In this document: positions 4,334 through 34,577 of the stretch, piece after piece | Position numbering within the stretch: position 1 is the stretch's first letter | Layout of the letters: each line of letters opens with the position of its first letter | Source: Hyphomicrobium methylovorum | GTDB taxonomy: Bacteria; Pseudomonadota; Alphaproteobacteria; Rhizobiales; Hyphomicrobiaceae | Assembly: GCF_013626205.1 (NCBI RefSeq) | Contig: NZ_QHJE01000001.1 | Span: forward strand, 1,964,501-2,028,500 | Direction of reading: 5' to 3' | Length of the DNA: 64,000 bases | The notes under the pieces: generated by a model | The model's input: the letters and a program-made list of their open reading frames with translations, nothing else | Told to the model about the DNA's origin: nothing | Databases searched by the model: none | Made by a program: the position numbers and the translations under genes

Positions 4334-4939
4334 ATGGCTGACGACTCTTCTCAGACCATTATCGATCTCTATCGACGTCATGCTCAGACGTGGACGACGG
4401 CGCGGGGCAAGACCCTCATGGAAGGCGCGTGGATCGAACGATTTGCGGCGCTGCTCAGGCCGAATGCGCGGTTGCTCGATATCGGCTGTGGTTCTGGGGA
4501 ACCGATTGCGCGTGCGCTTTCGGGCTTGGGGCATGCTGTGACGGGCGTGGATAGCTCGCCGGAGATGATAGCGCTGTTCCGCGCTAACTTCCCCGAGGCG
4601 GCCTCCCACGTTGCGGATATGCGGCGTCTCAAGCTGGGGACGACGTTTGATGGTATCGTGGCGTGGGACAGTTTCTTCCACCTCGCGCCGGACGATCAGC
4701 GCGCGATGTTTCCGATCTTCCGCGATCACGCTGTATCCGGCGCGCCGTTGATGTTCACGAGCGGTCCAAGTTTCGGGGAGGCGATCGGAACGCTGGAAGG
4801 CGAGCCGCTTTATCACGCAAGTCTTGATCCGCAGGAGTATCGTCAGCTCCTCGATCAGAACGATTTCGATGTGGTCGACCACGTTCGTGAGGATCCCGCC
4901 TGCGGCAATCACACGATCTGGTTGGCGCGCCGACGATAG
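4334..4939 (+). CDS. class I SAM-dependent methyltransferase
   Basis: A 201-residue Rossmann-fold methyltransferase. Motif I is LLDIGCGSGEPIARAL (about residues 48–63), followed by GVDSSPEMI (motif II acid, which binds the ribose of S-adenosylmethionine) and the motif-IV region VAWDSFFHLAPDDQ. The substrate is unknown. GGGAACGTGA precedes the ATG. It follows dapE by 54 bases on the same strand and could be cotranscribed, but it has no clear link to lysine synthesis. Confidence 0.88.
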   Translation: MADDSSQTIIDLYRRHAQTWTTARGKTLMEGAWIERFAALLRPNARLLDIGCGSGEPIARALSGLGHAVTGVDSSPEMIALFRANFPEAASHVADMRRLKLGTTFDGIVAWDSFFHLAPDDQRAMFPIFRDHAVSGAPLMFTSGPSFGEAIGTLEGEPLYHASLDPQEYRQLLDQNDFDVVDHVREDPACGNHTIWLARRR

Positions 4940-6897: not shown

Positions 6898-9420
6898 CTA
6901 GTTCGCCGTTAGAGTGCGGAGTTGCTCGTCTGCGGGCGAAGGTGCGCGCACGCTTGGTGCTTTTCTCGCGAGCGTTTCGGGTGTTGCGCGGCGAGCGCTG
7001 GGAGACGGCGATGCCGGAGCGCGCCGGGCCGGAAGAAGATCGCGGCGGGCATTGTTTTTCGCGTGCGTTGCCAGGTCTCGCAGCAGAACGTCGAGCAGCG
7101 GCGCTGCAACCTGCGCGGCGTGCAGATCTCGCGCCCAGGGCTTTGACGCGTTTCCGGTGCCGACGAGTACAACGTAGGAATATGCGGCGCCGTTTGTGAA
7201 TTGCAGACCGCCCGAGGCCCAGGCATCGACAGTTGCATTCGGATCGAGGCCGACGGATGTTCCCGTTTTGGCGAAGTGCAGCCGAAGTCCGGCGCGGCGG
7301 TGCGCGCACCATTGGTTGATCGTTTTCAGTGTGCCGTATGCGGTGCCGCCCGTTTGATAGCAGAGCGGCGCTTCGAGAAGGCTACGGATCAGTCCATTCG
7401 CGCCAGGTCGGATCAGCGATTTTGGAATGATGGCCGGTTGGGCTTCCGCTGCAATGCCTGAACCGCCTTCGCCTTGCTGCGTGTAATCGTAAGCCTTGAT
7501 GAGCGTCGGCTGGTTGACCGGCTTCGTCGCGCGGCCGATCAGGGACGCCAGGATGACGCTCGACATCAGGTGGACGCGGCGCGGGGCGCCGGCGATTTGT
7601 CCGAGCACGACGGCCGTCGATGGTGGTGTTCCACCAGTTGCGGCGGCGGGCGGCATGGCGAATCCGAAGCCGTCGATCAGGCGCTTGACCGGAGCTTGCC
7701 CGAGCGCAGCGCCACGCGAAATGAGTGGCGCGTTGAGCGAACAGGCGAACGAGACGATGGCTTTTCGCGGCTGGCGGCTTGTGCCCTTGGCGCATGTGTC
7801 GAGACCCTGCGCTGGAGCCGACGCGTCGTCGTACAGGCTTTCCGTCGTGTCGCGGCCTTGATTGGCGAGCGCGATGGCGAGCAGCATTTTTCCCGCGGAT
7901 GCGATTTGTCGGTTTTCGGAGCGGGGATTGTAAATTCCATCGCTTGTGTTGCGTGCGGGAAGGGAGCTGAAATAGGCGGCTGTTTCGCCGGTTTCGTAGT
8001 AACGCACGATCCGGCCGTCGGCATCGGCGGCAACGACGATTACGTTCGGTGCCGAGCGGTCGGCGGACGTCTTGCTGGGATCCAGAGTGAAGGCGGGATC
8101 GATGCGTGACATCCACTTCGCATCCAACGTGCGAAGCTCGGAATCGATGCCGTCGCGAAATGCGAGGTTTTCGCCCACGTCGAATGTCGTCGTGACGCCG
8201 CGCACGTAATCGCGCCAGCCAAAGCCGTAGCGTTCCTTCATCTCTTCGCGCAAGCCGAAGCGCGCGGCGGGCAATAGCAGATTGGCGCGGATGACGGGGT
8301 TGGCTTCCGCACGTTTTGTCTGGCCGGGGGCGAAGCGTTCAAGTGCTGCTTCGAGCTTGGGGCGAAGCTTTGGATTGGGCGGACCACCGGCGAGCGCCAT
8401 CAGCTCGAAGACAACGGTCTTCTGTTCGTTTTCATCGGTTAGAAGTTTTTCCGCGCAGGTTCGGGCGCGAACTTCCGTGATGTAACGCCAGCGATCGAGG
8501 CGCACGGCATTCAGCCGGTCATTGCCTTCGAGCAGAATGATCGGCTTGTTGACGGCGGAGGCGAGCACGAACTGCTCGGCCGTCGTCAGGTCCTTGGCTT
8601 CTTTTCCGAATACGACTTGGCTTGTCACTTCGACGCCGTGCAGCGGCTGTCCGCCGGTACGCTGTGCGAGCCAGATGTGATTGGCTGCCCATTGCTTCAG
8701 AAGCGTGTCGTCACCTCCGCGTGTCAGTTCGCGATAGATGACGGGCGCGAGCCACCACTCTCCGAGCTTGCGGCGGAGTTTACCGATGCCGCCTTCATCG
8801 AGGCGCGGCGGTGTTTTGTAGATCACGCGCGCGAACTGCATCGGCAGCGTCGATCCGCCGACGCCGAGGGTTGGCCGCCCAGTGCTGAGAGAATGCGAAA
8901 TGGTCGTCAGGGGGATCTTCAGCACACCGATGAGATCGATGCCGAACGGGTTCAGCGGGCCGCCGAGGTAGCGGTCTTCATGATAGGAAAGGCAACGCCA
9001 GTACTGCTCCGGAACGTCGCGCACGGGGATCGATTTGTGATCCGGGTTGGCTACGTAGTCGCCGAGTTCGATCGCAGAGTCGGTGTAATTCACGTCGCGC
9101 AGGCTATCGAGCCGCGGGTCGAACGTGCCGATGAAGTTTCCCTTCGGATCGTAGATGGCAGTCGCGAGCCAGCGTTCCGCGTCGTAGCCGAGTTTGTCGT
9201 GGAGGGTGAGTTGCCCGATATAGCCGCGGATCGGGGCGGCGACGTAGACGAGGACGAGGGCGAAGAGACCGTAGAGAACAACGGCCGTTGCGACATGGCG
9301 CAGGGGGCCGAGCCGGGGATTGAACGGTATGGCCATCATCAGCGTGCGCAGGATGCGCCGCGGAATAGAGAGGCAGAGGTCGCCGGCGGCGATCAGTTGC
9401 CGCAGTACATGTAAAATCAC
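6898..9420 (-). CDS. bifunctional penicillin-binding protein (GT51 transglycosylase plus transpeptidase), divergent type
   Basis: An 840-residue peptidoglycan synthase. One membrane helix lies at about 44–64. The GT51 glycosyltransferase domain shows EDRYLGGPLNPFGID (about 148–162) and GGSTLPMQ (188–195). The transpeptidase half keeps all three penicillin-binding motifs: SAGK at 508–511, SLN at 561–563 and KTGT at 718–721. A low-complexity Ala/Arg/Pro tail follows. Overall it departs from typical PBP1a/1c in length and spacing. GTG at 9420 is the longest start and lacks a strong ribosome binding site; ATG at 9339 (MMAIPFNPRLG), just before the membrane helix, is a fair alternative. Confidence 0.85.
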   Translation of the reverse strand: MILHVLRQLIAAGDLCLSIPRRILRTLMMAIPFNPRLGPLRHVATAVVLYGLFALVLVYVAAPIRGYIGQLTLHDKLGYDAERWLATAIYDPKGNFIGTFDPRLDSLRDVNYTDSAIELGDYVANPDHKSIPVRDVPEQYWRCLSYHEDRYLGGPLNPFGIDLIGVLKIPLTTISHSLSTGRPTLGVGGSTLPMQFARVIYKTPPRLDEGGIGKLRRKLGEWWLAPVIYRELTRGGDDTLLKQWAANHIWLAQRTGGQPLHGVEVTSQVVFGKEAKDLTTAEQFVLASAVNKPIILLEGNDRLNAVRLDRWRYITEVRARTCAEKLLTDENEQKTVVFELMALAGGPPNPKLRPKLEAALERFAPGQTKRAEANPVIRANLLLPAARFGLREEMKERYGFGWRDYVRGVTTTFDVGENLAFRDGIDSELRTLDAKWMSRIDPAFTLDPSKTSADRSAPNVIVVAADADGRIVRYYETGETAAYFSSLPARNTSDGIYNPRSENRQIASAGKMLLAIALANQGRDTTESLYDDASAPAQGLDTCAKGTSRQPRKAIVSFACSLNAPLISRGAALGQAPVKRLIDGFGFAMPPAAATGGTPPSTAVVLGQIAGAPRRVHLMSSVILASLIGRATKPVNQPTLIKAYDYTQQGEGGSGIAAEAQPAIIPKSLIRPGANGLIRSLLEAPLCYQTGGTAYGTLKTINQWCAHRRAGLRLHFAKTGTSVGLDPNATVDAWASGGLQFTNGAAYSYVVLVGTGNASKPWARDLHAAQVAAPLLDVLLRDLATHAKNNARRDLLPARRAPASPSPSARRATPETLARKAPSVRAPSPADEQLRTLTAN

Positions 9421-10157: not shown

Positions 10158-13100
10158 TTAACGCAGATCAAAGAGCCGGAGCTGGCGCTCGTCAATTCCT
10201 CGCGTTTCCGCCGCCAATTGTTCGATGCGATCGAACGGAACCTGTTCGGCGGCGATCAGCGAGCGCTGCGCCTTGATCGGGCGGACGAGCCCTTCCTGCA
10301 CAAGGTGGAATTCGCCGACCGTCTGGCCCGGCAACGCGCTTGCCGGATCGAGGCCCGATTCCGACTGGAACGCTGCTTTGAGCTTCCTGAGCGCGGTATC
10401 TTCGCGAACGCGGCCGATGAACCAACTCGTGATCTGATCGCGGCTCTTGTAGTCGAGGTCGCCCGGCGACTGGGTGGCGAGCATCATGCCGAGGCCTGCG
10501 GAGCGTGCGCGCTTCAGCAAGCTTTGCAGCGGCTCGGCCGTTGCCGGTTTCGAGTTCGCCGGAATGTAAAGGTCGGCTTCGTCGAACATGACGACGGCCT
10601 GCAGTTCGTCGTTCGGGTTGCGCTGGCAGAAGCGGAGCGCTTCCGAGAGGAATTGCGAGACCCAGAACAGGATATTCTCGTTGTCGCCGAGGAAGCCCGT
10701 GTAAATGACGGAAAGGCGCGTGCGGTTCGGGCGCTGATAGCGGCCGAGACCCAGCAGGCTTTCCATACGCAGGCTTTCGCCGCCGCCTTCGAAGAGTGCG
10801 GCATTGCGCAAGCGCAGGGAGTCGAGCTGCGCAACAAGATCACGGCGGAGTTTGCCCGACGGGTCCATGCGCTGCGTCTGATCGGTCAACTCGGGGTGTT
10901 CGTCCTCGAGGAGGTGGATCAAGTCTGCGAGCGTGACTTCGTTGGTCGAGAGCGAGCCTAGAATGCGCAAGGCCACAGCGAGCACGCCAGACTGCTTTTG
11001 ATGCGTCGCGGAATTCTTCAGATGTAGCATCTCGCCAAGTGCTGCGGCGGAGAGATTGGCAAGCAGTTGCTGCTCGTGGTCCGGCAGTTCGTTGATGCCG
11101 TTCGGAAGCAACGTGATCGAGATTGGTCGGCCCGAAGCGCGGCCGGGCGTATAAACGGCGACGTCGATCGCGTCGGCAAGTTTCTCGCGCTCGGCGCGGC
11201 GGTCTTGTGCTTCGTTGTCGTTGGCGCGCCAGACTTCCGGGTTCGCGTAGCTCGCGAGGTCGCCCTTGCGGTCGATCAGAACCGCCGGAATACCGCGCAG
11301 CAGAAGCTGTTCGATGAGCGACAATGCGATTGTCGTTTTACCGGAGCCGGAGCCGCCGAGGAACGCTGCGTGGCGTTTCAGAACGCTCTTGTTGAGCGTT
11401 ACGGGGCGTGCACCACGATTGCCGACTTCGCGACCCGCAAGGATGCTGGCGCCGTATGTGCCATCCTCGTCGAGAATGACGGACATCGGCAATTCGTCGT
11501 CGTTTGCGGGCAGGCCGGAGGCAGCTTGTTCCGAAGCGTCGACGGGATTGGATTGTTCCGGGCCTTCGTCGAAGCCCGCCAGCGACGTCTGCGGATCATT
11601 CATGTCCTTGGCGACGAGGCGCGGAACTGGACGGCCAAGCAGATCGAGACGCAGAAGATGGATAACCGATAACAGGCTCGACAGCGGCTTCGTGCCTTCC
11701 AGCCACTGCGCCATGCCCGTGTCGCCGCGATGGTGCGCAGTGAACTCGCGCACCGTCATCATGCGTTCCCATTCGGGGATCGGCACGAGAAGCTGGCGTC
11801 CGCCGCCGTCGCGGAATTTGCGGAAGGCCTGAGCCGTCTGGTTCTTTTTATTCGGCGGGAAATCGCTGGCGCGTAGCATGAAGCAGGGCTTGCCCTGCAT
11901 CGCGGGCAGCACCTTGTCGAGCTGGCGCTTGAGACCGCCGCCCTGCGTCGGCCGATTGCACAGGAAGACGCGAATGTCGTTGGCGAAGCCGGTGCGGTGA
12001 CGAACCGTCAGATCGAATGCGGGCAGTTCGTCGCCGAGTTCGAGACGCTTCACCGTGACTTCGATTGAGCGGCCCCATTCGTCGCGCGCGAGGAGCAACG
12101 CGGCGGAAAGGATGTCGACCAGTTCTTGATCGTCGGCGGGCATCTCCGCTTCGCTTTCGTTGGCGAAGCGTTCCCACATCTCGCGGAACTGGACGGCGGA
12201 AATTGCCGGTGTGTCGTCTTCCTGTCCGAAGCCGACGGCCTGGCCGAGAGCCTGCGCCAGCGTGCTGATGAACGACGGCTTGTCGTCGGATTCAGTCTCG
12301 CGCTCATCGCCTTCCGTTGACGTTGCTTCGCGCAGACGCGATTGCGCGTGCTCGAGAAGGCGTCGGGTCGAAAGGCCGCCGAATTCCTCGAAGAACTGCG
12401 GGCCGAAGAACTGCGAAGCGTCGGGGAAGCTCAATCCGCCGCCGCTGATCTCGGACTGATGCGCCAGCCGCTTCGAGATGATGAGGCGCGCTTCTTCCGG
12501 CGTTCTGCTTTCGCGCAGAAGCACGGGGCCGGATTTCTCGATGCGGTCGACGTAGGACTGCGCAACGAGGCCGCGCACCTGCCCGTAGAAGTCTTCGAGG
12601 CACGAGATAATGATGATCGCGTTCGTCAGCCGGTTGGCGATCTGGATGAGGTCGCGAACGGCGCGCTGGAAGCGTTCCTCGGCGTTGTCGAAGAAGCGCA
12701 GGTCTTCCACCTGGTCGATGCAGAAGACGAGCGCCGCGCGATCGACCGTCCAGACGAGGGCGCCGAGTGCGGCAATAATTTCGAATGCGCGGTCTTCGCC
12801 GTCATTCGGGTCAAGCGCGCTCACGGCTTCGTGGGCGATTGGCGTCAACTGGCGGCCGTTCAGATATTGGCGGACGCGCTGGTCGATGCGGGGGTCGCGG
12901 CGCTGCAGGTAAAGGAGCGCGCGCACGATGTTGATGTCGAGTTCGCGCGTCTGAAATTTCTCGCAGGCGACGATTTGGTCGGCGAGGCGGAGGATCAGCT
13001 TGGCGAGTTGCTTGTCGTCGAGCGTAGCATCGCGCAGCTTGTCGAGATCGGCAGACGAGATCACCTCGGAATCAAGCACCATGCGGTTCGTCAGGCGCGA

Positions 13101-13526
13101 GAGCGCGGACTCACCGAAGCGATCGGGATCGTAAGGTTTCTCAAGCGAATTGACAAGGCGGCGCAGATAAAAGTCGGCGTAGTTCTGCACGTCCGGCGTC
13201 ATCTGTGCGTAGCCGAAATAGCTTTGGCCGGTGCGATGGGAGTCCGTGCGCAGCGCGCGCAGCAGGTGCGTCTTGCCCGCGCCGGACTGTCCATGAAACA
13301 GCAGAATGCGCTCAGGGACGTGATATCCGCGTCCCGATGTGACGGTGGTCAGAAGGTCGTTGAATTTCTGTCGGGCCTTGGCATGAATTTCCGGGACGTC
13401 AACCGGATCGGCGCGCCAGAGATCGTCTTCCCAAGTAATCGAATGCTCAAACGCCTCGCTCAGCTTATCTGGAGCAAGGGTTGGAGCAAATTCCGTCTTA
13501 GAGAGTGGACCGCCTTCGACGCCCAT
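10158..13526 (-). CDS. 1122-residue protein with two distinct P-loop NTPase modules (AAA-like plus HerA-like)
   Basis: The N-terminal module (about 25–400) is an AAA/STAND-like ATPase with Walker A GQSGAGKT (79–86) and Walker B ALVFCIDQVED (about 265–275). Residues 440–640 form a region I do not recognise. The C-terminal module (about 680–1110) is HerA/FtsK/VirB4-like: GGSGSGKTT (724–732), a strand LIDRKGDL typical of HerA-DUF87 proteins, Walker B VVMFDEADLYIP (979–989), and the sensor stretch MLATQSPGDLDYK. HerA-like pumps translocate DNA or unwind it; the first module may sense or load. It lies 17 bases after its partner gene and starts with ATG at 13526. Housekeeping or defence role: unknown. 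Confidence 0.85.
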   Translation of the reverse strand: MGVEGGPLSKTEFAPTLAPDKLSEAFEHSITWEDDLWRADPVDVPEIHAKARQKFNDLLTTVTSGRGYHVPERILLFHGQSGAGKTHLLRALRTDSHRTGQSYFGYAQMTPDVQNYADFYLRRLVNSLEKPYDPDRFGESALSRLTNRMVLDSEVISSADLDKLRDATLDDKQLAKLILRLADQIVACEKFQTRELDINIVRALLYLQRRDPRIDQRVRQYLNGRQLTPIAHEAVSALDPNDGEDRAFEIIAALGALVWTVDRAALVFCIDQVEDLRFFDNAEERFQRAVRDLIQIANRLTNAIIIISCLEDFYGQVRGLVAQSYVDRIEKSGPVLLRESRTPEEARLIISKRLAHQSEISGGGLSFPDASQFFGPQFFEEFGGLSTRRLLEHAQSRLREATSTEGDERETESDDKPSFISTLAQALGQAVGFGQEDDTPAISAVQFREMWERFANESEAEMPADDQELVDILSAALLLARDEWGRSIEVTVKRLELGDELPAFDLTVRHRTGFANDIRVFLCNRPTQGGGLKRQLDKVLPAMQGKPCFMLRASDFPPNKKNQTAQAFRKFRDGGGRQLLVPIPEWERMMTVREFTAHHRGDTGMAQWLEGTKPLSSLLSVIHLLRLDLLGRPVPRLVAKDMNDPQTSLAGFDEGPEQSNPVDASEQAASGLPANDDELPMSVILDEDGTYGASILAGREVGNRGARPVTLNKSVLKRHAAFLGGSGSGKTTIALSLIEQLLLRGIPAVLIDRKGDLASYANPEVWRANDNEAQDRRAEREKLADAIDVAVYTPGRASGRPISITLLPNGINELPDHEQQLLANLSAAALGEMLHLKNSATHQKQSGVLAVALRILGSLSTNEVTLADLIHLLEDEHPELTDQTQRMDPSGKLRRDLVAQLDSLRLRNAALFEGGGESLRMESLLGLGRYQRPNRTRLSVIYTGFLGDNENILFWVSQFLSEALRFCQRNPNDELQAVVMFDEADLYIPANSKPATAEPLQSLLKRARSAGLGMMLATQSPGDLDYKSRDQITSWFIGRVREDTALRKLKAAFQSESGLDPASALPGQTVGEFHLVQEGLVRPIKAQRSLIAAEQVPFDRIEQLAAETRGIDERQLRLFDLR

Positions 13527-13543
13527 TGCGAATCGAGATGCCT

Positions 13544-14701
13544 TTAATCTTGAACGCGCACGAAATGCCAGACGGTGTTCTTGTAGAGGATTTTGGAATC
13601 CTCAAGCGATGTCAGATCGCGGCCGTCTTTGAGGTCAGCCGTCGCCAATTCGATCTGACCCGAGCGGTGGGCTTCGGCGAGCATGCCCTTGAAGGCAATC
13701 TCGGAAAGTCCCCAATCAGGCCGGGAGTGGCGAATCGCCTTCCAGACCAAAGAGATAAACGCCTTCCGGTTGCCTGGCCAGCCCTCCGCGACGGGACGTG
13801 CCGCATCGACAACAGCGCGGCAGAATTCCGCCATGTCGGGCGGGGAGATTTTCTGCGCAGGCGCAGCGCCGGACATTGGCGCGGGGTCGTTCGCTGCGCG
13901 CGGCGTTTCGCGGCGGGGCGCGCGGCGTTCCGTGGGAGTCTGCTCGGAGCGCTTCGCGGCTGGTGCGTTTTCCGGTGTCTCGGCCGGTGCGAACATGCTT
14001 CGCAGGACGGCAAGTTCCAGTGCCGGGAGCGCAGCGTCGCGAATTCCAGCAATTTCACAAGCAAGCTGTATTATCAGTTTGCCATCGCTTGCTAATTCGC
14101 GCGGAGATTTGAACAGTTGTCCGGCCAGAAGGCGTCCGGCTTTGGCTGGAAGGCCCGCGCCTTTGGTGAGCCCGGTCTTGATCTTGTTGCCGAACGCCCG
14201 TTCGAGCGCGACGATCGCCAGATCGGCCCTCAAGTTCGCAGGCGAGCGGACGCGGTCGGTTGGTTTTCCGAAATGGTGCTGCAACACAAGGGCGGAGAGA
14301 CCCTCCACGCGCTGGAGCGCTTTGCGGATCGCGGGCGTGTCGGTGGCGGAGAGGGCGCGTAACAGGAGTGCAGTTCGGATTTCTGCCCAGGAGAGATCCG
14401 CTGGCCGTGCTGGACGAAGCGCTGCCATGGCACTTTCGAGACCTTTCGGCGTTGCGGCCAGCCGCCCCTTCGTCTCCGTCACCAAGTTACTGCCGGTCAG
14501 CGAACTGATGGCCAATTCAGCGGATTGGCGAAATTCGGTGCCGGACATGCGCTTCGTCAGCAAAGTCGCCACGTCGCGCTGCAGGTCGGCCCGGGTCGCA
14601 CCGCCGGCTGCGATACGAAGCAGAATGACATCGCGCGGCGTGATGTCCGTCGGTTGATCCGACTTCAGTTTCAGCTCCAGGTGTCCGATGGCTGCCGTCA
14701 T
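13544..14701 (-). CDS. winged-helix-like partner of the double ATPase, unknown function
   Basis: A 385-residue protein from ATG 14701, which has GGAG 11 bases upstream (the frame is open to 14788). The N-terminal third looks like a winged helix: DVILLRIAAGGATRADLQ, then SSLTGSNLVTETKGRLAATPKG. The middle is helical, followed by a Pro/Ala/Arg-rich linker (about 245–290). The C-terminal domain (about 300–385) has AFISLVWKAIR, FKGMLAEAHRSGQIELATADL and a final TVWHFVR. From memory, such a C-terminal domain also occurs beside P-loop proteins in other bacteria; I could not check this. It is the first gene of a two-gene operon with the ATPase. Confidence 0.7.
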   Translation of the reverse strand: MTAAIGHLELKLKSDQPTDITPRDVILLRIAAGGATRADLQRDVATLLTKRMSGTEFRQSAELAISSLTGSNLVTETKGRLAATPKGLESAMAALRPARPADLSWAEIRTALLLRALSATDTPAIRKALQRVEGLSALVLQHHFGKPTDRVRSPANLRADLAIVALERAFGNKIKTGLTKGAGLPAKAGRLLAGQLFKSPRELASDGKLIIQLACEIAGIRDAALPALELAVLRSMFAPAETPENAPAAKRSEQTPTERRAPRRETPRAANDPAPMSGAAPAQKISPPDMAEFCRAVVDAARPVAEGWPGNRKAFISLVWKAIRHSRPDWGLSEIAFKGMLAEAHRSGQIELATADLKDGRDLTSLEDSKILYKNTVWHFVRVQD

Positions 14702-15035: not shown

Positions 15036-15089
15036 GGATTTCCGGCAATGATGGTTCTAAGCGCACGTTTCGTGCCGGGAGTATCTTTT

Positions 15090-15758
15090 ATGTACCGCGT
15101 CGCTCTCGCCGGGCTGGTGACCGCTCTTGCCGGTTGCAGTCTCGGTTCGTCCTCGATCTCTTCCGGATTTGCTGAATCCGAAACGACAACAGCTTCGCTC
15201 AGTTCACCCGGTTTCGGGTCCACGGCATCCGCGAAAAGCGTTGGCTTGGGCGGCGAGCCGTCCCGGCCGCGCACGACGAAGGTTGCGGCACTCGACAAGG
15301 CACCGAATGGCTCGTTCGAACGGGCGGAACCCGGCACGCTTTCGGACCGCGACTACTCGCGCACGGCGCTCAATGCGGAAATGGCGCGAGACGTCATCAA
15401 TGCCTATCGCAAAAAGAATAAGTTGAAGCCCCTGCGCCTCAATCCGGAACTGACCGAAGCCGCAAAAGCGCACTCGCGCGATCTTGCGAAGTGGGATCGC
15501 ATTTCGCACTACGGCTCCGACGGATCGAACCCTTGGGATCGTGTAAAGCGCGCTGGATACAATGCGCGGCTGACGGCTGAGAACGTCGGTACGGGGCAGG
15601 TCAATTTCAACGAAGTGATGCGCGGCTGGGAGGAAAGCCCTGGCCACAACAAGAACCTGCTGACGCCTGACGCTGTGCATATGGGCATTGCGCTGGTGCA
15701 GGATCCGAAGACCGAATTCAAATCATTCTGGACGCTCGTCGTCGGCGCCCCGATGTAA
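15090..15758 (+). CDS. CAP (SCP/PR1) domain lipoprotein
   Basis: A 222-residue envelope lipoprotein. Starting at 15090, which has GGGAG 8–9 bases upstream, gives a textbook signal (MYRVALAGLVTALAGC) with lipobox LAGC and Cys16. A Ser/Gly-rich linker follows. The CAP domain covers about 100–222: INAYRKKNKLKPLRL, the histidine AHSRDLAKW, ISHYGSDGSNPWDRV, TAENVGTG and the second histidine SPGHNKNLL. Bacterial CAP proteins are secreted and poorly characterised; some bind cell wall or lipids. The frame extends to 15048 but that would spoil the signal peptide. A CtrA-like box lies upstream. Confidence 0.88.
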   Translation: MYRVALAGLVTALAGCSLGSSSISSGFAESETTTASLSSPGFGSTASAKSVGLGGEPSRPRTTKVAALDKAPNGSFERAEPGTLSDRDYSRTALNAEMARDVINAYRKKNKLKPLRLNPELTEAAKAHSRDLAKWDRISHYGSDGSNPWDRVKRAGYNARLTAENVGTGQVNFNEVMRGWEESPGHNKNLLTPDAVHMGIALVQDPKTEFKSFWTLVVGAPM

Positions 15759-15878: not shown

Positions 15879-17336
15879 TTAGTCGCGTTTGAACTTCGGC
15901 AGGTTGTGCCAGATCGCGATTTCGATGCCGAGGCGGCGGCGGACGACGTAGGCGCTCGTGAGCGCGATGATCGTCAGAGACAGCGCCGTGGCGCCTGCCG
16001 CGCCCTCAAGTCCGAAGCGCGGCACGGCTAAGAAATTCAGCACCACGTTGATCGCGGCACCTGAGAGAAGCACGGCCGCACATGCGCGCTGTTCGCCGAG
16101 CATGTTCAGAAGGTATTCGGCCGGACCCATCGCCGAGCGGAATAGAAATCCGATCACCAGGATGCACATCACCGGATAACCGGTAGAGAATTCTGGTCCG
16201 AAGAGGCTGAGTAGCGGTTTGCCGAGCGTCAGGATCACCAACGCGCTGGCGAGCGAGGGCCAGAAGGTCCAGTTGACGGCGTCGTTGACGAAGGCGCGCA
16301 GCCCGGCGTCGTCGCCGCGCGAATGAAGGGCCGCGAGTTTGTGCGCGACTGCGCTGCCGACGGCGTAGTGGACGAACAGGATGAGTGCCATCGTCTTCCC
16401 GGCTGCAAAGTAGATTCCGACATCCTGGGGCGACATAAAGCGCGAGACGACGAGGATGTCGGTGTTCTGCATCAGCAGTTCAGCCGTCATCATGACGAGG
16501 AGCGGAAGCGAGATCGTCAGCCACGCGGGGAGATCGCTGAGGCGCGGGCCCGGCGGCACGGTTTCTCGCAGGCGGCGGTTGAGGACGAGAGCTTGCACGA
16601 TGCCGGTCAGCCACGTTGCGATGATCGCGGCTGCGGCGGCGGTGGCGGCGTCCATGCCGAGGCCAGATGCTTTGGCCGCGATCATTCCAAGAAGCAACAG
16701 CGACGGGCGCAATAGGTAGGGCGGAATGAGTGCAACGCCCATCCAGGCATTGCCACGACCGAGACCGTCTTGCACGTCCGTCAGCGCATAGAGCGGAATG
16801 CAAACGAGGGCGAGGTATAGCGGCAGCACGTAGTGGCTTTGAATGTGTTCCTGAAAGAGCCAGACGCCCGCGACGCCAGCCAGCATCACGGCGGTTCCGC
16901 TGCCAAGCGCCACCAGCCTGACGCTGCGTGTGAGGCCACGGAGTCGATCGAAGTCGCCAGTTTCTCGGTAAGCCGGGACGAGGCGGATGGCGGCGAGGTT
17001 GAGCCCGAGGTGGGACATCGCGCCGAGGATCAGAACCCAGGTCCAAACGGCAACATAAATGCCGTACTCGGACCCGCCCATCCAACGCGCCAACGCGATC
17101 TGTGTGAGATAGAGAAGGCCCGCACTCATGACGCGCACGGAGAATGCAAGCAACGCGTCGCGCTGGGTGCGTTCCCGCTCGCCTTGCGAGGCAATCACAT
17201 TGCGGGCGATTTCGAATAGCGTGCGTGGGAGAGCCCGCGCGTAATGGAGGGCTGATCGTTCGCGTGCCGCGTCCTCCGGGAGGATGGCAAGCACAGACGG
17301 CGCCGCTTCGAGGCTTGATCCGTTGGCGCGCGTCAC
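15879..17336 (-). CDS. polysaccharide-type flippase (Wzx/MATE-like membrane protein)
   Basis: A 485-residue multi-pass membrane protein with about 12–14 hydrophobic helices. It has the flippase hallmarks LYLTQIALARWMGGSEYGIYVAVWTW near the N-terminus (shown in part), SRFMSPQDVGIYFAAGK in the middle and ALSLTIIALTSAYVVRRR at the end. Members export lipid-linked sugars for surface polysaccharide. The start is GTG at 17336. No glycosyltransferases lie beside it, so it is an isolated flippase. A 78-residue gene ends 18 bases upstream and probably shares its transcript. Confidence 0.85.
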   Translation of the reverse strand: MTRANGSSLEAAPSVLAILPEDAARERSALHYARALPRTLFEIARNVIASQGERERTQRDALLAFSVRVMSAGLLYLTQIALARWMGGSEYGIYVAVWTWVLILGAMSHLGLNLAAIRLVPAYRETGDFDRLRGLTRSVRLVALGSGTAVMLAGVAGVWLFQEHIQSHYVLPLYLALVCIPLYALTDVQDGLGRGNAWMGVALIPPYLLRPSLLLLGMIAAKASGLGMDAATAAAAAIIATWLTGIVQALVLNRRLRETVPPGPRLSDLPAWLTISLPLLVMMTAELLMQNTDILVVSRFMSPQDVGIYFAAGKTMALILFVHYAVGSAVAHKLAALHSRGDDAGLRAFVNDAVNWTFWPSLASALVILTLGKPLLSLFGPEFSTGYPVMCILVIGFLFRSAMGPAEYLLNMLGEQRACAAVLLSGAAINVVLNFLAVPRFGLEGAAGATALSLTIIALTSAYVVRRRLGIEIAIWHNLPKFKRD

Positions 17337-33642: not shown

Positions 33643-33731
33643 TTCTGAGGGCCGAAATTTTGCGCCGCCGCCGTGGATGGGTAGCGCCGGGTAAGCGGTC
33701 CGGTGCATGATGCGGTGATCGCGAGGCTTTG

Positions 33732-34577
33732 ATGGTTTCGAACTCGGTGCGTACGCTCGGAATTGCTTTTTGCCTCAGTGCGCTTTTAGGAGTGCCAGCG
33801 GGGGCTATCGCCGCGGAGGCGACGGAGCCCGTTTCTCAAACTGCTGAAATTAGCGCGCACGCAATCACAAGTTTGCTGCATCGGGCAAAGCCCGGGCATC
33901 GCCCTGATATTTCAGGGAAGTTCCTGGTGTATCTCGATCTTTCCGATCTCGACTTCAAGCGCGCCAATCTCGCGCGTTCGGATTTCTATGGGGCAGACTT
34001 TACCGGAGCCAATCTTTCGGGTGCCGATCTTTCGCATACGCGTCTTGATCGCGCGGTGCTGATCCGAGCCAACCTGTCGGAGGCAAACCTTACCGGTGCA
34101 ACGATTTTCCGCCCGACGATCTATTCCGATCTCTCTAGCAATACGCTCGATGCGCCGAACTTTGCCGGAGCGAATTTGTCGAACGTCCATGTTCAGGCGG
34201 AGCTCTCAGGATCGGACTTCCGGGGCGCTAATCTGGCCGGTGCTGATTTCGCTCCGCTTGAAGTGCGCGCCGGTCAGGGCACGATGGTGACGGCCTATCG
34301 AAACATTCTCAAGTATTGCGATTTCTCCGGCGCAAACCTGCACGGCGCCCAGATGCAGCGCGTGGTGATGTGGTTTGCGAAATTCGTCGGAGCAGATCTG
34401 ACCGGCGCGAACTTCGAGGATGCCGATCTGTCGCGCGCTGATTTCGCGGGCGCCGACGTTTCGGGGGCGAATTTTGCGGGAGCCGATCTCGACGGCGCGA
34501 GTTTTGTTGGAGCGAAAGGCTTCGATCAGGCGAAAGGGCTAGATCAAGCAATCAACCGCGACAGAGCCATTCATTGA
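33732..34577 (+). CDS. secreted pentapeptide-repeat protein
   Basis: A 281-residue protein with a signal peptide (VSNSVRTLGIAFCLSALLGVPAGAIAA, given in short). Then follow three groups of A(D/N)LxX repeats, such as ANLARSDFYGADFTGANLSG, LIRANLSEANLTGA and GADLTGANFEDADLSRADF, which form a right-handed square beta helix. The usual pentapeptide proteins are cytoplasmic; this one is exported. ATG 33732 has GAGG upstream (TTG 33729 is one codon earlier). No function can be assigned. Confidence 0.88.
   Translation: MVSNSVRTLGIAFCLSALLGVPAGAIAAEATEPVSQTAEISAHAITSLLHRAKPGHRPDISGKFLVYLDLSDLDFKRANLARSDFYGADFTGANLSGADLSHTRLDRAVLIRANLSEANLTGATIFRPTIYSDLSSNTLDAPNFAGANLSNVHVQAELSGSDFRGANLAGADFAPLEVRAGQGTMVTAYRNILKYCDFSGANLHGAQMQRVVMWFAKFVGADLTGANFEDADLSRADFAGADVSGANFAGADLDGASFVGAKGFDQAKGLDQAINRDRAIH

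What the first reader, a model, noticed from the sequence alone, without database searches (positions are those of the whole stretch)
10158..14701. Two-gene unit: a double-NTPase (AAA-like plus HerA-like) with a winged-helix partner
A single 1122-residue chain carries two complete P-loop modules of different classes. The first is GQSGAGKT (79–86) with Walker B at about 265–275. The second is HerA-like, GGSGSGKTT (724–732) with VVMFDEADLYIP at 979–989. The two genes are 17 bases apart. HerA-type pumps with an extra AAA/STAND-like module recur in anti-phage, plasmid and chromosome-handling systems, but the domain order here does not match BREX, DISARM, Dnd or HerA–SIR2 systems I can name. The partner has an N-terminal winged helix and a distinctive C-terminal domain. 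It is a real candidate for an undescribed DNA-handling or defence unit, but it could also be housekeeping in this order.
Basis: partly seen in the sequence, partly recalled or inferred. Interest (0 to 1): 0.75.

Follow-up and report, generated by a model that had tools for sequence, protein, structure and literature searches.

The report
Core immune-type DNA pump without nuclease
Two neighbouring genes encode a double-motor DNA-handling machine that resembles predicted anti-virus systems, but here no DNA-cutting gene sits beside it and every sampled member of the bacterium's family carries it, so it probably does a permanent job for the cell rather than being an occasional defence add-on.

Summary
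In detail: an intact 1122-aa chain with two conserved P-loop motors, 17 bp downstream of a 385-aa partner. By fold, the front motor resembles BrxC/Orc-type AAA+ ATPases. A middle domain follows with restriction-nuclease-like helix/strand order but no E-x-K lysine, then a HerA/FtsK motor. The closest published kind is the Orc/CDC6-HerA/FtsK 'capture' systems (PMC10853773), described as mobile and armed with an active nuclease. This version has no nuclease gene beside it. It is in 36 of 36 sampled genomes of its family, 8 of 8 of a second and, strongly diverged, 8 of 8 of a third. It keeps one chromosomal neighbourhood in eight families, and both motors evolve slowly (dN/dS about 0.03). Two-motor relatives in Methylobacterium, Tsukamurella and Nonomuraea do have a DUF559 nuclease gene upstream. 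The third family keeps the AAA+ half and partner but carries a DptH-type HerA motor: a motor exchange inside a core locus. Best reading: immune-type parts retained as a nuclease-less cellular DNA translocase. Whether it acts on self or foreign DNA is open. New variant of a known kind.

The parts
10158..13526 (-). 1122-aa two-motor protein: Orc/BrxC-like AAA+, REase-like middle domain, HerA/FtsK motor
   Evidence: ORF and Pfam; 39 of 39 homologues keep all 18 catalytic positions checked
12315..13394 (-). Orc/Cdc6/BrxC-like AAA+ module, residues 45-404 (boundaries approximate)
   Evidence: Pfam AAA_22; Foldseek 9zll_B BrxC E 3.6e-4, then other BrxC and ORC chains; dN/dS 0.034
13269..13292 (-). 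first Walker A, GQSGAGKT, residues 79-86
   Evidence: translation; residues 79, 84, 85 and 86 invariant in 39 of 39
12702..12731 (-). first Walker B, residues 266-275
   Evidence: translation; D271, Q272, E274 invariant in 39 of 39
11637..12206 (-). middle domain, residues 441-630: REase-like helix/strand order, no E-x-K lysine; probably inactive
   Evidence: secondary structure of the model; C-N-R, C-N-E or C-T-A at the motif position in 16 of 16 rows; no Pfam or PDB sequence match
10161..11456 (-). HerA/FtsK motor, residues 691-1122
   Evidence: Pfam DUF87 and HerA_C; PADLOC mad8 3.7e-20; dN/dS 0.031
11331..11357 (-). second Walker A, GGSGSGKTT, residues 724-732
   Evidence: translation; 724, 729-731 invariant in 39 of 39
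10560..10595 (-). second Walker B, VVMFDEADLYIP, residues 978-989
   Evidence: translation; D982 and E983 invariant in 39 of 39
13544..14701 (-). 385-aa partner protein
   Evidence: ORF; directly upstream in 73 of 79 loci; model pLDDT 85.7
14411..14641 (-). partner winged helix, residues 21-97; fast-evolving
   Evidence: model; dN/dS 0.248
13547..13840 (-). partner C-terminal domain, residues 288-385; slow-evolving, inferred docking domain
   Evidence: model; 94% median identity, dN/dS 0.057
15048..15758 (+). CAP-domain gene, divergent conserved neighbour; not thought to be part of the machine
   Evidence: Pfam CAP 3e-24; divergent within 4 kb in 52 of 60 loci and 10 of 10 loci of seven other families
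6898..9420 (-). PBP-like transglycosylase gene downstream, a less constant neighbour
   Evidence: Pfam Transgly 4.8e-14; same strand within 7.5 kb in 32 of 58 loci

Best explanation
The pair is a core, vertically inherited DNA-translocating complex built from the parts of 'HerA/FtsK capture' systems but without their nuclease. Shown: both NTPase sites are strictly conserved; the partner gene is always adjacent where the contig allows a look; all sampled genomes of three families have the unit; no nuclease gene flanks it in the window; two-motor relatives elsewhere have a DUF559 nuclease gene upstream; the HerA half differs in origin between two lineages that share the AAA+ half and partner. 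Inferred: the HerA halves form a ring that pumps DNA; the Orc/BrxC-like AAA+ part loads or gates it; the partner docks by its conserved C-terminal domain and reads DNA, or a DNA-bound factor, by its faster-evolving winged-helix half; the middle domain is a dead nuclease fold used as scaffold or DNA grip. With no cutter of its own, the most likely job is to move, strip or exclude DNA rather than to destroy it: former immune parts used as permanent DNA-handling equipment.
For: 36 of 36 genomes of the family, f33 8 of 8, f30 8 of 8. The ATPase gene is open in a 1.8-Mb genome of the family. The CAP-partner-ATPase order holds in 52 of 60 loci and 10 of 10 loci of seven other families. ATPase identity follows DapD identity (Spearman 0.91, 28 genomes). 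dN/dS is 0.034 and 0.031 for the motors against 0.141 and 0.125 for two flanking genes. The own genome has no match to the DUF559 nuclease gene of the relatives; 31 of 60 genomes have matches, nearly all limited to its short nuclease part. Fold match to BrxC and Orc. HerA exchange.
Against: All function is inferred; no experiment is available. The partner's winged-helix half evolves fast, as sensors in conflict systems do. The relatives look like immune loci, and a truncated pair of the f30 type lies on a conjugative plasmid. A nuclease encoded elsewhere is not excluded: 22 of 36 family genomes have some DUF559-like match, and other nuclease families were not searched. The middle domain's fold and inactivity rest on predicted secondary structure. 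Foldseek TM-scores are low (target-normalised 0.27-0.34 for BrxC chains), with low-probability isocitrate lyase matches interspersed. Five of 24 other families is a minority.
Confidence: 0.5

Rival explanations
1. A working anti-invader system of the capture kind that happens to be stably inherited: the partner recognises foreign DNA or its proteins, the pump reels it in, and a nuclease encoded elsewhere, hidden activity of the middle domain, or exclusion alone does the damage.
For: All part types occur in described capture systems (PMC10853773); relatives have an upstream DUF559 nuclease gene; fast-evolving winged-helix half; HerA exchange with a DptH-type motor; a plasmid-borne relative.
Against: Universal in three families, fixed neighbourhood, kept in a 1.8-Mb genome, no nuclease gene beside it, no defence genes recognised among 10 nearby proteins apart from a generic methyltransferase match.
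Confidence: 0.33
2. A DNA repair or end-processing motor comparable to HerA-NurA, using a general nuclease.
For: HerA homology and purifying selection.
Against: NCBIfam repair HerA model 13.7 bits against a cut-off of 800; a separate HerA-type protein exists in the own genome; the Orc-like half and the fast-evolving partner are not explained. NurA itself was not searched.
Confidence: 0.08
3. The motor that moves the chromosome through the hypha into the bud.
For: Found throughout Hyphomicrobium and Filomicrobium, including cultured strains; HerA/FtsK motors pump DNA (established knowledge); in Hyphomonas neptunium the stalk step is 'driven by an unknown mechanism' and an FtsK-type translocase is suggested (PMC6650430, passages).
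Against: No membrane-spanning stretch (highest 19-residue Kyte-Doolittle mean 1.83). Not found outside the order in the class samples, although stalked budding also occurs in Hyphomonas, which those unnamed samples may or may not include. Two-motor relatives lie in actinobacteria. Morphology of f30 and f33 members is unknown.
Confidence: 0.05

Closest known systems
Orc/CDC6-HerA/FtsK capture systems (PMC10853773)
   Same: Orc/Cdc6-like AAA+, REase-like middle domain, HerA/FtsK motor, additional fast-evolving winged-helix protein, and HerA motors of different origin in related systems.
   Different: No nuclease gene beside it, single fused chain, family-wide presence and a conserved chromosomal neighbourhood instead of a mobile one.
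DUF559-WH-AAA/HerA three-gene loci (L145, L146, L147)
   Same: Two-motor protein of similar size and layout; the HerA half matches at 90-152 bits.
   Different: They have a DUF559 nuclease gene. Their small middle protein has no detectable sequence match to the partner (under 2 bits), and the front half matches weakly (7-61 bits).
DndFGH/DptFGH
   Same: The HerA motor of the f30 relatives is of DptH type (315 bits to the 1776-aa protein after annotated dptF-dptG).
   Different: The window's HerA scores only 12 bits there; no DndF or DndG match to the partner or front half.
BREX (BrxC)
   Same: Fold of the front motor (9zll_B, E 3.6e-4).
   Different: No BrxC profile match at E 1 in PADLOC; no PglZ or BREX methylase recognised among the neighbours scanned.
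mad8 (PADLOC 'mads_8')
   Same: Best PADLOC profile for the HerA half, 70.7 bits.
   Different: It covers the HerA part only (314-aa profile); no mad operon recognised.

Membership tests
Orc/CDC6-HerA/FtsK capture system | Orc/CDC6-family AAA+ ATPase | tested here: met
   AAA_22 in Pfam; BrxC and ORC chains lead the Foldseek list. Fold level only; TM-scores are low.
Orc/CDC6-HerA/FtsK capture system | HerA/FtsK motor | tested here: met
   Pfam DUF87 and HerA_C above cut-off
Orc/CDC6-HerA/FtsK capture system | inactive REase inserted between the AAA+ core and its C-terminal wHTH | tested here: inconclusive
   helix/strand order and missing lysine fit; no sequence confirmation; no clear wHTH after it in the model
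Orc/CDC6-HerA/FtsK capture system | wHTH protein | tested here: met
   winged helix in the partner model; weak fold matches to winged-helix proteins, none under E 0.001
Orc/CDC6-HerA/FtsK capture system | active REase in the operon | tested here: not met
   flanking genes are CAP and a transglycosylase; own genome has no match to the relatives' nuclease gene. A nuclease elsewhere is not excluded.
Orc/CDC6-HerA/FtsK capture system | mobile gene neighbourhood | tested here: not met
   fixed neighbourhood and family-wide presence
DndFGH | DndG and DndF partners, DndH-type HerA | tested here: not met
   no match of the partner or front-half profiles to Priestia DptG or the DptF part; window-type HerA 12 bits against 315 for the f30 type
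BREX | BrxC sequence family with PglZ and methylase neighbours | tested here: not met
   no BrxC match in PADLOC at E 1; none recognised among the 10 neighbours scanned
Stand-alone anti-phage HerA (NCBIfam HerA_antiphage) | NF042943 score at or above 800 bits | tested here: not met
   26.5 bits
HerA-NurA repair | NF040937 HerA at or above 800 bits, with NurA | tested here: not met
   13.7 bits; NurA not searched
FtsK/SpoIIIE | FtsK_SpoIIIE domain and membrane anchor (anchor recalled) | tested here: not met
   18.9 bits, below the 24-bit cut-off; no membrane-spanning stretch

The most novel reading that the evidence does not exclude
An immune Orc-HerA machine has lost its nuclease and become a family-wide motor that moves or clears the cell's own chromosome, in Hyphomicrobiaceae possibly through the hypha into the bud, the step of unknown mechanism in stalked budding bacteria.
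Probability: 0.12. Interest if true: 0.93.

Novelty: new variant of a known kind. Interest (0 to 1): 0.58.

Why it matters
HerA/FtsK capture systems are presented in PMC10853773 as predicted, mobile defence loci. A version that is a core gene pair of whole families, without a nuclease beside it and with a different HerA motor in one branch, would show how immune machines turn into permanent cell equipment. It can be tested by deletion in culturable Hyphomicrobium strains, and it offers a concrete candidate for an unknown DNA motor in hyphal budding bacteria.

Tried and rejected
Defence-island reading: 10 nearby window proteins scanned with PADLOC gave only a mad2 match for 4334-4939, which Pfam reads as a generic methyltransferase domain. 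Phage origin: PHROG matches are motor or short P-loop segments; the viral contig scan had 116 pattern matches and confirmed none; the phage collection gave 2 records with a HerA segment annotated yjgR; BFVD fold search of the partner gave none under 0.001. Kleisin-like partner: a JetABC chain leads the PDB fold list, but at E 0.065. Partner as DptG: no match. Partner as homologue of the small protein of the DUF559 loci: under 2 bits, so alike only in place and size. Middle domain as an identified REase: no Pfam or PDB sequence match.

Limits. The A2 profile misses distant forms: in the order sample (31 of 297) 3 genomes of f30 scored weakly, while a search of that family with P0003 found 8 of 8; therefore speak for the near form only. 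The class search with A3 gave 3 of 289: own genome plus two P-loop-only matches. The phylum search with P0003 at E 1e-10 gave 5 of 299: own and one same-order genome in the front half, three others in the HerA part only. One search counts 54 of 60 because weak HerA-only matches are included; the 41 of 60 is the better figure, and 2 of its 5 other-family positives (G043, G050) are short pieces at contig ends. One search confirmed 131 stretches and returned 80, 79 distinct. Alignment A1 uses 38 of the 79 plus the window; A2 uses 46 of 73 plus the window. dN/dS rests on 8 close relatives (7 for the PBP gene) with dS near 1, so the values are rough. The DapD comparison used 28 of the 35 other family genomes (seven whose ATPase match was split were left out); two of the 28 have partial ATPase matches. 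'Hyphomicrobiaceae' for the window's family is inferred from named loci. I did not build trees or predict the complex.
Full report
WHAT IS THERE. The minus-strand pair is real: a 385-aa protein (13544-14701), then after 17 bp a 1122-aa protein (10158-13526). Pfam sees AAA_22 in front and HerA (DUF87, HerA_C) behind. NCBIfam, PADLOC and PHROGs see motor segments only. The partner has no match above a curated cut-off (best Pfam line for it E 0.11; best among 47 relatives 0.012) and no PDB sequence match alone or as a profile.

ANATOMY. The ATPase model has mean pLDDT 70.3. Most blocks between residues 41 and 360 and between 451 and 630 lie at 80-95; the HerA half is poor. Foldseek against the PDB has one match under 0.001, the BREX BrxC N-terminus (9zll_B, E 3.6e-4). 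Other BrxC chains, ORC/Cdc6, TnsC and HerA chains follow, with low-probability isocitrate lyase matches between them and low TM-scores throughout. Residues 466-600 run helix, three strands, helix, strand, helix, strand, the order of a PD-(D/E)xK nuclease core (recalled). Where E-x-K would lie, 16 of 16 rows read C-N-R, C-N-E or C-T-A, with no lysine. No sequence search confirms the fold, so 'dead nuclease domain' is inference; it agrees with the inactive REase described for capture systems. The partner model (pLDDT 85.7) has a winged helix, a helical middle, a low-confidence linker (245-279) and a compact C-terminal domain. Fold searches of it give no match under 0.001 in the PDB or BFVD.

RATES. 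Against eight close relatives the AAA+ and HerA modules have dN/dS 0.034 and 0.031 and the middle domain 0.052; the flanking PBP-like and CAP genes have 0.141 and 0.125. The partner is split: winged helix 0.248, helical middle 0.139, C-terminal domain 0.057 with 94% median identity. The simplest reading is a conserved docking domain on a conserved engine, with a fast-changing front end.

DISTRIBUTION. With a profile of the front half that includes distant forms, 36 of 36 genomes of the window's family (own included) and 5 of 24 single representatives of other families of the order are positive. Family f33 is 8 of 8: seven near full length at 54-55% identity, one as two contig pieces. Family f30 is 8 of 8 with a strongly diverged form (32-100% to P0003 by piece). 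A family member with a 1.8-Mb genome keeps the ATPase frame open. Class samples of 337 and 289 genomes and a phylum sample of 299, drawn mostly from outside the order, gave no further two-part match. ATPase identity follows DapD identity in the family (Spearman 0.91, 28 genomes).

SITE. In 79 loci from named records the partner is directly upstream in 73, and the other 6 contigs begin inside the ATPase gene. The CAP gene lies divergently within 4 kb in 52 of 60 loci with enough upstream sequence, and the PBP-like gene on the same strand within 7.5 kb in 32 of 58. The CAP-partner-ATPase order holds in 10 of 10 loci of seven other families. The f30 form lies elsewhere; in four loci of one genus its neighbours are largely shared, and between genera they differ. 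Descent at one chromosomal place is well supported for the near form. For f30 only family-wide presence is shown.

RELATIVES WITH A CUTTER. Three plasmid-collection records hold two-motor proteins of about 1085-1110 aa: Methylobacterium aquaticum, Tsukamurella tyrosinosolvens (between ribosomal-protein genes) and Nonomuraea gerenzanensis. Their HerA halves match clearly; their front halves match the front-half profile weakly (A3 whole-protein scores 22, 41 and 58 bits). Each has a small protein gene directly upstream and, before that, a gene with a DUF559 domain (E 5.1e-9, 4.5e-13, 7.5e-11). In 60 relatives of the window's genome (own included) I searched the Methylobacterium nuclease gene: no match in the own genome, matches in 31 of 60, nearly all limited to the short DUF559 part, and none at all in 14 of 36 family members. 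The near form therefore has no cutter beside it. Whether it lost one or the others gained one is not resolved.

MOTOR EXCHANGE. Profiles of the two halves disagree. For the front half, near and f30 forms match at 70-151 bits; near and DUF559-locus forms at 7-61. For HerA, near and DUF559-locus forms match at 90-152 bits; near and f30 only at 7-22, less than the near profile against another HerA of the own genome (42.7). The f30 HerA profile scores 315 bits on the 1776-aa protein that follows annotated dptF and dptG in Priestia megaterium, where the near profile scores 12; PADLOC DndH profiles agree (4.7e-25 to 3.7e-32). So one platform and partner carry HerA motors of two origins, the 'capture' behaviour described in PMC10853773, here in loci that are family-wide. 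A truncated f30-type pair next to IS3-type genes on the conjugative plasmid pXAUT01 (partner 129 bits, AAA+ 236 bits) shows that the lineage can also move.

WHAT IT IS LIKE, AND WHETHER IT IS ONE. It works like the Orc/CDC6-HerA/FtsK capture systems (PMC10853773: sections 22 and 26 read in full, passages otherwise). Two of their features were tested and not met, an active nuclease in the operon and a mobile setting, so I do not file it as a member; I call it a new variant built from the same parts. The BREX paper PMC12839542 (abstract, outline and passages) describes Orc-type BrxC and a further HerA/FtsK-BREX composite. Searches of the open-licence library for HerA with Hyphomicrobium (0 papers), capture-system terms, HerA with core genome and Rhizobiales and DUF559 with HerA (2 papers, listing only) listed no paper that appears to describe this core form. 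Subscription papers and supplements were not searchable. PMC10853773's main text does not contain 'hyphomicrobi', 'rhizobiales' or 'alphaproteobacteria'; its supplements were not seen.

HOW IT PROBABLY WORKS. Inferred: partner on DNA, AAA+ part as loader or gate, HerA ring as pump, dead nuclease fold as scaffold. Without a cutter, moving, stripping or excluding DNA is more likely than destroying it. I give 0.5 to permanent DNA-handling by former immune parts, 0.33 to stable immunity, 0.08 to repair and 0.05 to the hyphal chromosome pump. For the last, the stalk step in Hyphomonas is stated to be of unknown mechanism with an FtsK-type motor suggested (PMC6650430, passages), but the lack of a membrane anchor and the relatives in another phylum argue against it. 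The wider novel case, any own-chromosome motor role, gets 0.12 and overlaps the first and last of these.

Noticed in passing
L146:4244-9212: Three-gene DUF559 nuclease / small protein / two-motor ATPase cassette lying between ribosomal-protein genes on a Tsukamurella plasmid record.
   Followed up: partly
L152:7901-11718: Truncated f30-type pair (Xaut_4854, Xaut_4853) next to IS3-type transposase genes on the conjugative plasmid pXAUT01 of Xanthobacter autotrophicus Py2.
   Followed up: partly
L104:6023-10212; L131:7842-11874; L106:9513-14077: Diverged two-gene units of family f30 with a DptH-type HerA motor.
   Followed up: partly
window 6898-9420 (-): 840-aa protein for which Pfam reports only a transglycosylase domain; no transpeptidase domain was listed at E 1.
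   Followed up: no
window 34377-34504: 30-bp tandem repeat inside ORF 33729-34577; its unit suggests pentapeptide-repeat coding (read by eye).
   Followed up: no
window 17013-17092 (-): ARAGORN tRNA-Ile(tat) call inside the flippase ORF, not reported by Rfam at gathering threshold; probably spurious.
   Followed up: partly
window 4334-4939 (+): Methyltransferase-domain protein after dapE matches the PADLOC mad2 profile (5.8e-17), probably through the generic fold.
   Followed up: partly
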